Shown one piece after another: positions 8,213-12,290 of a stretch of DNA of 32,807 nt. Below the pieces are notes generated by a model. That model did not search any database and had not been told where the DNA came from. It was given only the letters and a program-made list of their open reading frames with translations. The DNA lies in assembly GCA_947166655.1 (NCBI GenBank), contig CAMVFC010000029.1, positions 1 to 32,807 on the forward strand, in the 5' to 3' direction. This DNA is from an uncultured Prevotellaceae bacterium. GTDB lineage: Bacteria > Bacteroidota > Bacteroidia > Bacteroidales > Bacteroidaceae. Position numbers and translations under genes: made by a program. How positions within the stretch are numbered: position 1 is the stretch's first letter; each line of letters starts with the position of its first letter.

Positions 8213-8388
8213 ACCACTTGTGGTAATCGTCTTTACCAACGGTGATAATCGTTTTTACCATCGGTGATATGTTTCTATACCATCGGTGATATATTTCTAT
8301 ACCATCGGTGATATTTTTCTATACCATCGGTGATATTTTTCTATACCATCGGTGATATATTTCTTTACCAAGGGCGGTAAAAAAGAAA
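8213..8388. repeat. 22-bp tandem array, eight units
   Basis: Units start at 8213, 8235, 8257, 8279, 8301, 8323, 8345 and 8367, exactly 22 bp apart. The conserved part is ACCATCGGTGATA, followed by 9 AT-rich bases. Units 5 and 6 are identical, while units 1, 2 and 8 are diverged, so the array decays at its ends. Short reading frames across it show no coding character. It begins 60 bp after the mutS2 stop. The pattern resembles iteron-like protein-binding arrays; the function is unknown. Confidence 0.9.
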
Positions 8389-8614: not shown

Positions 8615-8998
8615 GAGGAAACGTTTTATGAATGTAGCTCACTCCATGCTAAATGCGCCTTCTGCGGAAAGGAGTTCACTTGTAACAGCGGCTCGCAGAG
8701 GTATTGCTCAGAACATTGTGCCGAGGCAGCAAAGGCTCAGCGCAAGAAGAGACAACAGGACTTTTTGAAGGCAGTCCAGCCTGTTATAGACATCGCCAGC
8801 CAGGAGTATCTTACATTCTCCAAGGCTGCCATCCTCATGGGGTGTTCCCGCCAGTACGTTTACAAATTGGTAAACGAGGGGAAGCTACCTGCATCACGAA
8901 TCAGCAGCCGGATGGCATTTATCCGTAAGGCAGACATTGAAAAGATGCTTGCTGGCAATCCTTACCATAGAGTGTTGTCAAACAAACCGTGCAAGAGA
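8615..8998 (+). pseudogene. Truncated excisionase-type HTH protein with zinc-finger-like N-terminus
   Basis: The frame opens after TGA at 8612-8614 without an ATG before the conserved part. It reads a Cys cluster (CAFCGKEFTC, then YCSEHC), a basic linker, and a MerR/excisionase-like helix-turn-helix (YLTFSKAAILMGCSRQYVYKLVNEGKLPASR followed in the gene by a short basic-to-acidic tail, RKADIEKML). Such proteins usually go with integrases of Bacteroidetes mobile elements. I recall longer relatives with further HTH modules; here similarity stops near 8990 and the frame runs into the 42-bp palindrome array, ending at 9100. Missing start and replaced C-terminus suggest a remnant. A functional short protein from TTG 8765 is possible but less likely. 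Confidence 0.65.
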
Positions 8999-9029
8999 TC
9001 ATCTCAGTCATCGTATGTTCATTCATCCT

Positions 9030-9255
9030 TGCCGCCTTGTCGGCACGCCAATTTTTCTTTGAAACTTCGCTTGCCGACCCGTCGCCAACCTAATCCATGA
9101 ACCATCTCCTTCGTGCCGACCCGTCGGCAACCTTCTCGGAGCATCCGTTTTCTCTTGCCGTCTCGTCGGCAACAGACTTTTTGTTCTCGTTTGCCCTTGC
9201 CGACCCATCGGCAAGTCAACTTTCGCCGTCATTTCCCTTTGCCGACACTTCGGCA
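9030..9255. repeat. Six palindromic 16-mers at exact 42-bp spacing
   Basis: Copies start at 9030, 9072, 9114, 9156, 9198 and 9240; every interval is exactly 42 bp. The consensus is TGCCGACCCGTCGGCA, a palindrome with 7-nt arms and a 2-nt centre. The third copy is perfect and the others differ at one to three positions. The 26-bp spacers are pyrimidine-rich and not conserved. 42 bp equals four turns of B-DNA, so all sites would face the same side of the helix. No cas genes are nearby, and the repeat is shorter than CRISPR repeats. Confidence 0.9.
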
Positions 9256-9540
9256 CGCGGCTTCGTCAGTCAATCTGAGTGCGAAGTTAACAAATAATCC
9301 GCAATTTCAGCCCCATTTCATCCAGATTTTTACAAAATCACCTCCATTTGAAACCGATTTTAGCAGTTTTTACACTTCCGAGGTCGGAATTTGAAGACTT
9401 TTGTGTAATTTTGCTAACGGATTTCGCTTTATGCGGTTTCGTAAGACAAAAAATCGTAGAACATAAAATGATTAGATGTATGGGAACATAACAGTAAATT
9501 GGACATTAGACTGAACGTCCACTTTTGATTCTTGTCTTTC
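9256..9540. other. AT-rich intergenic region with a possible promoter
   Basis: No gene is seen. TAATTTTG at 9406-9413 fits the -7 consensus TAnnTTTG on the plus strand and could drive the structured element and gene downstream; no well-spaced -33 TTTG was found. Confidence 0.4.
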
Positions 9541-9544
9541 GACA

Positions 9545-9686
9545 ATTGGGGAATTAGACAAAGTTATCATGAACTGAAGTAGATAGTTCACGCCGTTCGG
9601 CGTGGGCATTTACTCGTTTAAGATAACAGGTTATCCCCAATACCTCGAAAAACGTAAGCGAAGTAGATTGCACACGTTTTTTATTT
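9545..9686 (+). ncRNA. Candidate structured leader or small RNA ending in a terminator-like hairpin
   Basis: Nested complementary segments: ATTGGGGA (9545-9552) with TCCCCAAT (9634-9641); GTTATC (9563-9568) with GATAAC (9622-9627); TGAACT (9570-9575) with AGTTCA (9585-9590), which shares two bases with the GC-rich hairpin CACGCC/GGCGTG (9589-9604, loop GTTC). It is followed by AAAAACGT (9648-9655) pairing with ACGTTTTT (9674-9681) and a T-run, like an intrinsic terminator. The gene at 9737 begins about 50 bp later, so this could be a cis-acting attenuator or a free small RNA. I cannot name an Rfam family; no covariation was tested. Confidence 0.5.
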
Positions 9687-9736
9687 CCTCAACTGAATAA
9701 ACTATCAAACATGTTTAACAATAAAACTTAAAATTT

Positions 9737-10765
9737 ATGGGCGTATTTATTAAACAAGACAATCAATGGGTTTTATGTAAAGAAATCAAAGAGGGTGGTT
9801 CCACCAATGATGACCTTCAGGCATTAGGATATGAACACAATCAGTTCTATAGTTATACAAACTATAATCACCCAAGTGATTATGGTGATGATAGTGATGA
9901 CATATTATCTGTTTGTCTTAAGGTAATGACTGAGGATATTATATGTGTCATAGCAAGCCCTGGTAGGAAAACATTGACAGAATCAGAGGTTCGCTATTAT
10001 ATGCAAGACTTTGATTTCTCGCATGATTATAGCCGTTTTTCTATGGAATACGATTTGGATAGTGCTATTGCTGAACATAATTTCACTATTCAATTTGTGG
10101 CCGATGCTCTGGGGCTTTCATATTCGCCTGATGATAAAGTTTTGCATAGTAGCAGATTTAACTACAACTTCTTTTTCGAGGGAGGATTTCTGACTGGATA
10201 TGAAATTTCAGACGGTTACAATAGAGAGGCTCATGAGATGAAAGACCAAGGCTCTTGGATATACAAGCTCATCGAGTCGCACGCTATAAACTTTCATGGA
10301 TCTAACGATGATGCTGTTGTCAAGGAAATCAATATACAAGCTCGTGCTTTTCAAAATTTGCCTGGTGGAATAACAAATCAGTTTAAAGATGATTTTAAAA
10401 ATGCAGACGGCTCATACAATTTTGAGATGCTGTTAATTGCAAAATATCAAGGAACAGAGTACGAGGCTGGTATCAACTATGAAGATTGCAAATGCATCTG
10501 CCACCAAGAATTGAAGTTCGAGGGCAACGCCGAAGAGGGGCTGGACAAACTTTTAAAATATCGATATAGAGATTACGTTTTGACTTTTGACGAAAAGGGC
10601 CAGTTCATTTCATGTGAATATAGTCAACAACGAACTAATATGTCATCAAACGACACAAGCAATAATAGTACAAATCCATCATCAAGTTCGGGATGTATGA
10701 TAACTTTATTGCTTATGGTAACAGGTCTGTTATCGTTGATATCCGTTGTCTTTTTCATTGTTTAG
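9737..10765 (+). CDS. Hypothetical tail-anchored protein
   Basis: A 342-aa protein of no family I recognise. The N-terminal ~300 residues look soluble, acidic and aromatic-rich (for example SYTNYNHPSDYGDDSDD near residues 38-55), without signal peptide or known catalytic motif. Two cysteines occur in a CKCIC cluster near residue 253. Residues ~300-318 are a Ser/Asn/Thr-rich low-complexity linker, and ~319-341 form a single hydrophobic helix at the very C-terminus, the layout of a tail-anchored membrane protein with a cytoplasmic body. The gene is visibly AT-richer than mutS2 and the flanking core genes, which suggests acquisition. Its leader is A-rich without a clear Shine-Dalgarno. Upstream is the structured RNA candidate; downstream, convergent, is the DUF1016/xre operon. 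Function not inferable from sequence. Confidence 0.75.
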   Translation: MGVFIKQDNQWVLCKEIKEGGSTNDDLQALGYEHNQFYSYTNYNHPSDYGDDSDDILSVCLKVMTEDIICVIASPGRKTLTESEVRYYMQDFDFSHDYSRFSMEYDLDSAIAEHNFTIQFVADALGLSYSPDDKVLHSSRFNYNFFFEGGFLTGYEISDGYNREAHEMKDQGSWIYKLIESHAINFHGSNDDAVVKEINIQARAFQNLPGGITNQFKDDFKNADGSYNFEMLLIAKYQGTEYEAGINYEDCKCICHQELKFEGNAEEGLDKLLKYRYRDYVLTFDEKGQFISCEYSQQRTNMSSNDTSNNSTNPSSSSGCMITLLLMVTGLLSLISVVFFIV

Positions 10766-10787
10766 GATATTACGCAATAATTAATCT

Positions 10788-10827
10788 GAATGTAAGACAG
10801 GGGACGGAATTGCCCCCTGTCACATTC
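10788..10827. repeat. Long imperfect hairpin after the tail-anchored gene
   Basis: GAATGT (10788-10793) plus GACAGGGG (10796-10803) pair with CCCCTGTC (10814-10821) plus ACATTC (10822-10827), with only an AA bulge. It lies 22 bp past the stop of the 9737 gene and could act as its terminator, though only a weak T-rich tail follows. It could also be a REP-like palindrome. Confidence 0.55.
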
Positions 10828-10958
10828 TTTAACGCAATCTCCCTAGTTACTGTTATGTATCGTCTGAGATTTCTTACTATCCCCGTTCCTTACCCCATAA
10901 TGGGTTTTCTCATGCCTAATTTTTTACTTGCTATGTAAATTGACCCTATCAAGTCTCT

Positions 10959-11024: not shown

Positions 11025-12290
11025 TCATTTCTTCGTATTCCCATTCTCTTGCATCAAGAATTTCCGAATCTTTTCTTTACTTGGCAACTGTAACTCATAT
11101 CGGGCAACAAATAGTTGGGGGTCTGTGAATGGAGTAAGATATTCCACCATTTCCTGCCCATACGCTGTACATAGGAGCAGGCCTACAGGTGGATTGTCAT
11201 CGGGTTGCATATAGTGCTTGCGATAATACTCAATGTACATATTGAGTTGTGCAACATCTGCATAGTCCAGCCTATGGGCTTTGAGCTCCACGATGCAATG
11301 GCATTTCAAAATTCGATGATAGAACACCAAGTCTGCCTTGTAATAACGGTCGTCTATCAATAACCTCTTCTGCTCTTCTTCAAGGCAGAAACCCATGCCC
11401 AATTCCATGATGAAATCTTTCAGATGGCTTACAATTGCTGCTTCCAAATCATTCTCATCTATTGCATCTCTGGAAGAAAGGCCAAGGAATTCAAAGTAAT
11501 AAGGGGATTTGACATCCTGCTCAAAGGTTGGTCGCTCGGCTGTTCCATTTATCTTTTTGCTGAGCAATTCAGGCTTCTTGCTCCATCCGCTACGGGCATA
11601 GTAGTTGGTGTCAATCTGTCGCTGTAATTCTCTTACGCTCCAAGGTCCACGCATTGCCTCAATAGCGTAGAATGCTCGCTGCATTGAGTCTTCGACATGA
11701 AGAAGTTGAACAATATGTGTGAAAGAAAGTCGGTCGAACAAAGCTTGTGGAACAGTTTTTACACTCCCATCAGACAAACTCATGGCAAAGCCATCGGGAG
11801 AAATCCCTGTAACAATCAACGAATCTTGTGTCTCTGCAAATTTAGCAGTCAGCGACTGCTGTTTTCCTTCGTCTCGCAATTCAGCAATCAGTGACTGCTG
11901 AATCTGCGGGGGAAGAAATGTTATTGGGGAAGACTCCACCGTTTCCTCACCAAAACGTTCAAAAAGATAGTTGGCGATAGTGGGGCGCAGTTCTGGATAA
12001 AGCGTGTAAAACAGGCGGTAGCTGCGTAAGTTTGTGGCACTATAACTTTTACCACCTAAGCGTTTTGAAAGTTTCTGAAGAAGACCTTCACCATATTTGG
12101 CCCTGTCTTTTCCATGCTGCTCATATTCTACTATATAATAGCCAGTCAACCATGCTTTTGTTGTTATATTACGATTGATGACAACATGGGCATCTTGTTG
12201 CAATGCCTCTCCAACACTCTTTATATGAGAAACTAACGTCTCAAAGTTTTCAGAAAACTGATTTGCTGAATGCTTGATGATGTCTGCCAT
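11025..12290 (-). CDS. DUF1016 (YhcG-like) PD-(D/E)XK nuclease family protein
   Basis: The 421-aa protein has the two-domain YhcG/DUF1016 layout. The N-terminal domain (about 15-170) contains the typical YYIVEYEQHGKDRAKYG and LSKRLGGKSYSATNLRSYR segments. The C-terminal nuclease-like domain (about 265-405) contains D320 in KADLVFYHR and E335-L-K337 in IVELK, the PD-(D/E)XK pattern. The family is predicted to act on DNA and is often found in variable and defence-related regions; its substrate is not settled to my knowledge. It starts 4 bp after the stop of an Xre regulator, so both are co-transcribed, and ends at an intrinsic terminator. Setting near tRNA genes and repeats suggests an accessory operon. 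The family is confident, the biological role is not. Confidence 0.88.
   Translation of the reverse strand: MADIIKHSANQFSENFETLVSHIKSVGEALQQDAHVVINRNITTKAWLTGYYIVEYEQHGKDRAKYGEGLLQKLSKRLGGKSYSATNLRSYRLFYTLYPELRPTIANYLFERFGEETVESSPITFLPPQIQQSLIAELRDEGKQQSLTAKFAETQDSLIVTGISPDGFAMSLSDGSVKTVPQALFDRLSFTHIVQLLHVEDSMQRAFYAIEAMRGPWSVRELQRQIDTNYYARSGWSKKPELLSKKINGTAERPTFEQDVKSPYYFEFLGLSSRDAIDENDLEAAIVSHLKDFIMELGMGFCLEEEQKRLLIDDRYYKADLVFYHRILKCHCIVELKAHRLDYADVAQLNMYIEYYRKHYMQPDDNPPVGLLLCTAYGQEMVEYLTPFTDPQLFVARYELQLPSKEKIRKFLMQENGNTKK

What the first reader, a model, noticed from the sequence alone, without database searches (positions are those of the whole stretch)
9030..9255. Six palindromes phased at exactly 42 bp
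A 16-bp palindrome (consensus TGCCGACCCGTCGGCA) occurs six times with start-to-start distances of exactly 42 bp and unrelated 26-bp spacers. Conserved sites with non-conserved spacers under strict spacing imply selection for geometry, such as cooperative protein binding on one DNA face (42 bp is four helical turns), rather than simple tandem duplication. It directly follows a truncated excisionase-type HTH gene, so it could be the recombination, replication or regulatory region of a former mobile element, or a new kind of binding array.
Basis: partly seen in the sequence, partly recalled or inferred. Interest (0 to 1): 0.75.

Follow-up and report, generated by a model that had tools for sequence, protein, structure and literature searches.

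The report
Orphaned leader array of DUF6261 gene
Six copies of one 16-letter palindrome stand exactly 42 bp apart here, most likely as the stranded control region of a missing gene (DUF6261); most of the DUF6261 genes examined in related bacteria carry a 40-43-bp repeat array just upstream, which is predicted to be a row of protein-binding sites on one face of the DNA.

Summary
Six 16-bp palindromes do stand exactly 42 bp apart. The spacers are not unrelated: over 47 units of seven homologous loci they are 42% identical in register, 27% when shifted. It is an old tandem array whose sites stayed and whose spacers drifted; 40 of 41 steps are still 42 bp. Homologous arrays in three loci lie directly upstream of a DUF6261 (PF19775) gene. 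The window lacks that gene; a ~700-bp deletion joined its array to a truncated HTH gene. The link is general: 47 of 60 DUF6261 loci (family) and 21 of 30 (order) have an upstream array of period 40-43 bp, against 2 of 20 control stretches of 20 kb. Dyad arms vary half as often as the rest of the unit, without compensatory or clear G-T-biased changes, and a second dyad lies half a unit (20.5-21 bp) away: DNA sites at whole helical turns fit better than RNA hairpins. Arrays are not exclusive to DUF6261: in 800 kb of one complete genome 29 of 37 lie elsewhere, some sharing sequence with a DUF6261-linked array. The binding protein is unknown; cooperative operator control is inference. Five literature searches listed no description of this association.

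The parts
8651..9014 (+). remnant of an excisionase-type HTH gene (HTH_17; ORF 8765-9100 as listed), cut off at the junction with the array
   Evidence: Pfam HTH_17 E 1e-9; 89% identical to L057 4669-5043, where the gene runs on to 305 aa with four HTH_17 stretches
9015..9018 (.). deletion junction: about 700 bp present in L057 between the two sides are missing here
   Evidence: blastn: window 8651-9014 matches L057 5043-4669, window 9018-10919 matches L057 3961-2060
9030..9045 (.). site 1, TGCCGCCTTGTCGGCA
9072..9087 (.). site 2, TGCCGACCCGTCGCCA (one arm mismatch)
9114..9129 (.). site 3, TGCCGACCCGTCGGCA
9156..9171 (.). site 4, TGCCGTCTCGTCGGCA
9198..9213 (.). site 5, TGCCGACCCATCGGCA
9240..9255 (.). 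site 6, TGCCGACACTTCGGCA
9256..9427 (.). segment conserved together with the array in L057, L066 and L024, after which L066 and L024 carry other genes
   Evidence: blastn and alignment
9282..9289 (-). promoter-like -7 box TAACTTCG pointing through the array (the DUF6261 direction), ending 26 bp before site 6; motif recalled
   Evidence: pattern match only
9406..9413 (+). promoter-like -7 box TAATTTTG pointing to the cargo gene; motif recalled
   Evidence: pattern match only; present in all four aligned copies
9737..10765 (+). cargo ORF of 342 aa, function unknown, shared with L057 but not with L066 or L024
   Evidence: no Pfam or NCBIfam match; L057 97.5% identical over 9018-10919

Best explanation
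The six sites are most likely an orphaned copy of the 40-43-bp-period array that most of the DUF6261 genes examined carry just upstream, and the array is predicted to be a row of dimer-binding DNA sites, one every four helical turns, through which a protein would control transcription of that gene. Shown: homologous arrays directly upstream of DUF6261 in three loci; the general DUF6261-array link and its period; conservation of the dyad arms without compensatory change; absence of a DUF6261 match in the held genome and a deletion beside the array. Inferred: that a protein binds, that binding is cooperative along one face, that it acts on the DUF6261 promoter, and that the window copy has lost its role.
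For: DUF6261 beside homologous arrays in L110, L058 and L055. 47 of 60 DUF6261 loci with a 38-45-bp-period array, actual periods 40-43, each upstream of the domain; 21 of 30 in a second sample; 2 of 20 control stretches of 20 kb. A palindrome test with the step free from 36 to 48 finds 11 of 60, steps 40-43 only, all upstream. Units more palindromic than shuffled, 5.98 against 5.25, and a second dyad at 20.5-21 bp. Dyad arms differ from consensus at 0.050, the rest at 0.110; both-sided Watson-Crick changes 2 against 2.3 expected. G-T and A-C one-sided changes 25 and 20. Promoter-like boxes close to one end of the array in part of the loci.
Against: 29 of 37 arrays in 800 kb of G255 are not beside DUF6261, and only 3 of 65 blindly found palindrome loci are, so the array cannot serve DUF6261 alone. 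Periods of 40 to 43 bp all occur, which strict helical phasing does not predict. The array lies upstream of the promoter-like box in some loci and downstream in others; no box was found in 24 of the 47, and in the order sample only 7 of 22 have one between array and ATG. DUF6261 is predicted all-helical with no recognisable DNA-binding fold relative. In six of 47 loci the array overlaps the first in-frame ATG. Arms were chosen by their complementarity in the consensus, which may bias the mutation comparison slightly.
Confidence: 0.5

Rival explanations
1. Minisatellite dynamics alone: replication or repair in these bacteria favours tandem units of about 21, 42, 63 or 84 bp, homogenised by unequal crossing-over; the arrays have no function and DUF6261 leaders are merely a tolerant place.
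For: Arrays occur genome-wide in G255 with periods clustered at 21, 41/42, 63 and 82/84 bp; 22 of 32 blind arrays printed have spacers at least 70% alike; unit numbers vary between relatives.
Against: Arms vary half as often as the rest; in the window family sites stay while spacers drift; 47 of 60 and 21 of 30 DUF6261 leaders against 2 of 20 control stretches is hard to read as tolerance.
Confidence: 0.25
2. RNA hairpin leader: the array is transcribed in front of DUF6261 and acts as a string of stem-loops (attenuator, stability element or protein-binding RNA).
For: In 27 loci the array ends less than 90 bp before the ATG, and in 6 of these a promoter-like box lies before the array; a -7-like box precedes the window array in the DUF6261 direction; short-gap arrays lean to G-T over A-C changes, 14 to 7.
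Against: No excess of compensatory changes (2 against 2.3 expected) and none in the 47 units of the window family; overall G-T 25 and A-C 20, p 0.55; in 13 of 20 long-gap loci a promoter-like box lies after the array; no Rfam match apart from two tRNAs.
Confidence: 0.15
3. REP/RAYT-like dispersal: DUF6261 helps spread its array, and orphan arrays such as this one are its products.
For: 3 of 8 DUF6261-linked arrays in 800 kb of G255 have sequence-related orphans elsewhere, two of them related in the array alone; DUF6261 is multi-copy, up to 14 matches in a genome.
Against: DUF6261 matches no transposase family; the window, L024, L057 and L066 orphans look like one lineage that lost the gene, not separate insertions.
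Confidence: 0.07
4. Protein-coding repeat of 14 codons.
For: 42 is a multiple of three; one reverse-strand frame is open across the window array and several frames are open in relatives.
Against: 41-bp arrays are commoner than 42-bp ones, 36 against 25; the frame open through the arrays of L024, L057 and L066 has a stop in the window.
Confidence: 0.03

Closest known systems
F plasmid centromere parS_F (sopC): twelve 43-bp tandem repeats with 16-bp inverted repeats bound by ParB dimers (PMC6238139, passages seen)
   Same: Period (43 against 42 bp), 16-bp inverted repeats, one per unit, several units in a row
   Different: No ParB among the neighbours tested; many arrays of different sequence in one chromosome; spacers diverged; position upstream of DUF6261 genes
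BrickBuilt of Porphyromonas gingivalis: a 23-nt minisatellite inside a MITE-like element (PMC4596501, passages seen)
   Same: Intergenic tandem array near promoters, predicted stem-loops; a Bacteroidales species (from recall)
   Different: Unit 23 nt; leader and tail of a MITE-like element; no DUF6261 link reported in the passages seen
REP/RAYT systems (from recall; PMC3733652 seen only in the listing)
   Same: Palindromic repeats beside one gene family, with orphan copies elsewhere
   Different: DUF6261 is no transposase by Pfam; the arrays are strictly tandem with fixed period; dispersal is not shown
CRISPR arrays (from recall)
   Same: Short repeats separated by spacers of similar length
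   Different: Spacers here are homologous to one another and conserved between genera

Membership tests
DUF6261-linked arrays (class described here) | tandem units of 40-43 bp | tested here: met
   42 bp in all five steps
DUF6261-linked arrays (class described here) | homologous array lies directly upstream of a DUF6261 gene in relatives | tested here: met
   L110, L058, L055
DUF6261-linked arrays (class described here) | DUF6261 gene present beside the array in the window | tested here: not met
   no match in the held genome, 82% complete; hence 'orphan', not full member
ParABS centromere (parS_F type) | about 43-bp repeats with 16-bp inverted repeats | tested here: met
   parS_F description from PMC6238139
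ParABS centromere (parS_F type) | cognate ParB gene beside the array | tested here: not met
   Pfam of the tested neighbours: HTH_17, DUF1016/YhcG and no match; DUF6261 in relatives
ParABS centromere (parS_F type) | bound by a dimeric protein that spreads or bridges | not testable with these tools
   needs binding assays
CRISPR array | near-identical repeats with unrelated spacers | tested here: not met
   spacers related (0.425 against 0.274) and conserved across genera
CRISPR array | cas genes nearby | not tested
   no cas search was run on the window
BrickBuilt minisatellite-MITE | 23-nt unit | tested here: not met
   42-bp unit; 23-nt unit in PMC4596501
BrickBuilt minisatellite-MITE | terminal inverted repeats of a MITE | not tested
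   no search for element ends was made
REP/RAYT | linked Y1 transposase (RAYT) | tested here: not met
   Pfam finds DUF6261 and no transposase
REP/RAYT | orphan copies related in sequence to the linked array | tested here: met
   3 of 8 linked arrays in 800 kb of G255
Cooperative operator array | site sequence conserved rather than base pairing | tested here: met
Cooperative operator array | a protein binds the sites cooperatively | not testable with these tools
   needs binding assays

The most novel reading that the evidence does not exclude
DUF6261 genes and helically phased arrays form a new kind of two-part system: each DUF6261 copy comes with a private array of dyads set at whole helical turns (half-unit 20.5-21 bp, unit 41-42 bp), its protein reads that array and its dispersed same-sequence copies, and together they build filament-like or bridged nucleoprotein complexes along the chromosome, with sequence free to change but geometry fixed.
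Probability: 0.2. Interest if true: 0.87.

Novelty: new variant of a known kind. Interest (0 to 1): 0.66.

Why it matters
It turns an odd palindrome array into a testable rule: a protein family of unknown function is regularly found beside DNA arrays whose sequence is private to the locus but whose spacing stays near four helical turns. That gives DUF6261 its first functional lead, offers natural spacing variants (40, 41, 42, 43 bp), and lets one ask how geometry can be kept while sequence drifts.

Full report
THE OBSERVATION. The six palindromes are there, at 9030, 9072, 9114, 9156, 9198 and 9240, each start exactly 42 bp after the last. Among 101 genomes (own plus 100 relatives) no other holds even one adjacent exact pair TGCCG-N6-CGGCA with a gap of 11-41 bp, and the reversed pattern gives none.

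OTHER ARRAYS, SEARCHED BLIND. One scan of genome contigs for three such palindromes in a row, both gaps free between 11 and 41 bp, gave 65 stretches. Of 204 steps under 80 bp in them, 89 are 42 bp, 16 are 21 bp, 14 are 41 bp, and no other length exceeds 8. Of the 32 arrays printed with at least two spacers, 22 have spacers at least 70% alike, that is, plain tandem repeats. The closest relatives of the window array are L024 (Paraprevotella), L057 (uncultured Prevotella) and L066 (Bacteroidaceae, yak; its coordinates coincide with a hit in genome G596, of the window's own genus). L055, L058 and L110 belong to the same repeat family. From these names I take the window's order to be Bacteroidales.

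WHAT THE FAMILY SHOWS. From the window, L024, L055, L057, L058, L066 and L110 I took 48 units; one failed the site criterion, leaving 47, all distinct. The ten arm positions carry 1.5-2.0 bits, most spacer positions well under 1. Mean spacer identity is 0.425 in register and 0.274 when shifted, so the units descend from tandem duplication. Yet 40 of 41 steps are 42 bp and one is 41. At that divergence ordinary drift should have left more indels; this is inference, homologous loci are not independent, and homogenisation could also hide indels.

ANATOMY IN THE WINDOW. Window 9018-9427 (array plus 172 bp) is conserved in L066 (91%) and, from 9078 to 9413, in L024 (90%). What follows differs: the 342-aa gene in window and L057, other genes in L066 and L024; a shared small gene then appears in the three relatives. 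The HTH gene before the array is a deletion product: in L057 it has 305 aa and four HTH_17 stretches, and about 700 bp lying there between the counterparts of window 9014 and 9018 are missing here. A related element on one IMG/VR contig has the same HTH gene followed by a tyrosine integrase and no array. So the array is cargo of an integrative element.

THE MISSING GENE. In L110 (genome G596, contig 49) the order is HTH gene, DUF6261 gene pointing back, then the array, whose first palindrome lies 43 bp from the DUF6261 ATG. In L058 that distance is 44 bp. In L055 the open frame reaches to within 27 bp of the array, though the first ATG listed is 129 bp away. No DUF6261 match was found in the window's genome, which is only 82% complete.

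IS THE LINK GENERAL? PF19775 rings in 32 of 251 genomes of the family and 45 of 393 of the order. I fetched 60 of the 65 best family hits. Tandem Repeats Finder reports an array of 38-45 bp in 47 of 60, in each case upstream of the domain: 42 bp (21), 41 (18), 40 (4), 43 (4); six of these overlap the first in-frame ATG. A stricter palindrome test with the step free from 36 to 48 finds 11 of 60, with steps 40-43 only, all upstream. Control stretches from the same genomes (20 of 20 kb) have such arrays in 2, both of G651. Taking 3.6-kb windows, 47 of 60 against 2 of 111 gives Fisher p 1.5e-27; paralogues are not independent, so the figure is indicative. A second sample, the 30 loci returned for the order, has 22 arrays, 21 upstream and one downstream; periods 41 (18) and 42 (4). 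Unit sequences are mostly unlike between loci. The window array itself escapes Tandem Repeats Finder, so these counts are lower bounds.

AGAINST EXCLUSIVITY. Of the 65 blind loci only three have DUF6261 beside the array: L047, L055 and L058. In 800 kb of the complete genome G255, 8 of 10 DUF6261 genes have an array, but 29 of 37 arrays of 38-45 or 80-87 bp lie elsewhere. Periods there cluster at 21, 41/42, 63 and 82/84 bp. Of the 8 linked arrays, 3 have a sequence-related orphan in the same 800 kb, two of them related in the array alone (which under slightly different overlap rules lists 41 arrays). So such arrays are a wider feature, of which DUF6261 leaders are the most regular place I found.

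DNA OR RNA? Consensus units are more palindromic than shuffled ones (5.98 against 5.25; highest of 100 shuffles 5.49), and a second dyad peak lies half a unit away, at 20.5-21 bp. In 32 arrays with a clear dyad the arms differ from consensus at 0.050 and other positions at 0.110; both-sided Watson-Crick changes number 2 against 2.3 expected. Distinct one-sided changes are 25 G-T, 20 A-C and 22 transversions. In the window family T at position 11 never changes while its partner does. Sequence-read DNA sites would give this; RNA stems should show repair. Short-gap loci, where the array may be transcribed, lean to G-T (14 to 7), so RNA is not excluded. Promoter-like -7 boxes (motif recalled) lie between array and ATG in 13 of 20 long-gap loci and before the array in 6 of 27 short-gap loci; in all, 7 of 47 before and 16 of 47 between, against 1.45 and 3.17 in shuffles. 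In the order sample the box lies between array and ATG in 7 of 22.

THE PROTEIN. DUF6261 of L058 is predicted all-helical (mean pLDDT 78, pTM 0.52) with a disordered end; many of the 14 tails printed are rich in Gly, Pro, Thr and acidic residues. No fold relative stands out. Whether it binds the array is open.

COMPARISON. The nearest functional likeness is the F plasmid centromere: twelve 43-bp repeats containing 16-bp inverted repeats bound by ParB (PMC6238139, passages). The geometry is alike; membership fails, since none of the neighbours tested is a ParB. BrickBuilt of P. gingivalis (PMC4596501, passages) is a minisatellite with another unit. My searches listed no paper on DUF6261 arrays.

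VERDICT. In the window itself this is a deletion product, but it exposes a recurrent and, as far as searched, undescribed association of a gene family with helically spaced arrays. My odds: orphan DUF6261-type array about 0.85; protein-bound operator mechanism about 0.5.

Noticed in passing
window 8230-8370: Six copies of a 22-bp tandem unit containing ACCATCGGTGAT, between the mutS2-like gene and the HTH remnant.
   Followed up: partly
own genome: L294 19064-19125, L296 13231-13292, L302 8199-8259, L304 12274-12337, L308 9885-9946, L311 15416-15477, L312 15364-15425: A dispersed element of about 2.8 units of 22 bp, each unit a palindrome like GTTCCATCRYGATGGAAC plus 4 bp, in 7 of 20 stretches of 20 kb; 22 bp is the commonest array period there (22 arrays), while 41- and 42-bp arrays number one each.
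   Followed up: no
L253-L292 (G255, 800 kb): Tandem-array periods cluster at 21, 41/42, 63 and 82/84 bp, near multiples of two helical turns, in intergenic regions next to many kinds of gene.
   Followed up: partly
L028, L037, L043, L052, L062 (Prevotellaceae bacterium Roe453_bin86): One MAG with many 42-bp palindrome arrays; five of them lie near members of one paralogous family of unidentified proteins, on either side.
   Followed up: no
L057 872-1444 and 101-634; L066 231-617; L024 1887-2192; L111 4920-5927: A small conserved gene without Pfam or NCBIfam match follows the variable cargo of the element; in L057 a second HTH_17 gene lies beyond it.
   Followed up: no
window 11025-12290: DUF1016/YhcG nuclease-domain gene, matching the candidate defence family PDC-S02, next to two tRNA genes.
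   Followed up: no
L066 741-1517: Cargo gene behind the array has a DUF2971 domain and matches the candidate defence family PDC-S31.
   Followed up: no
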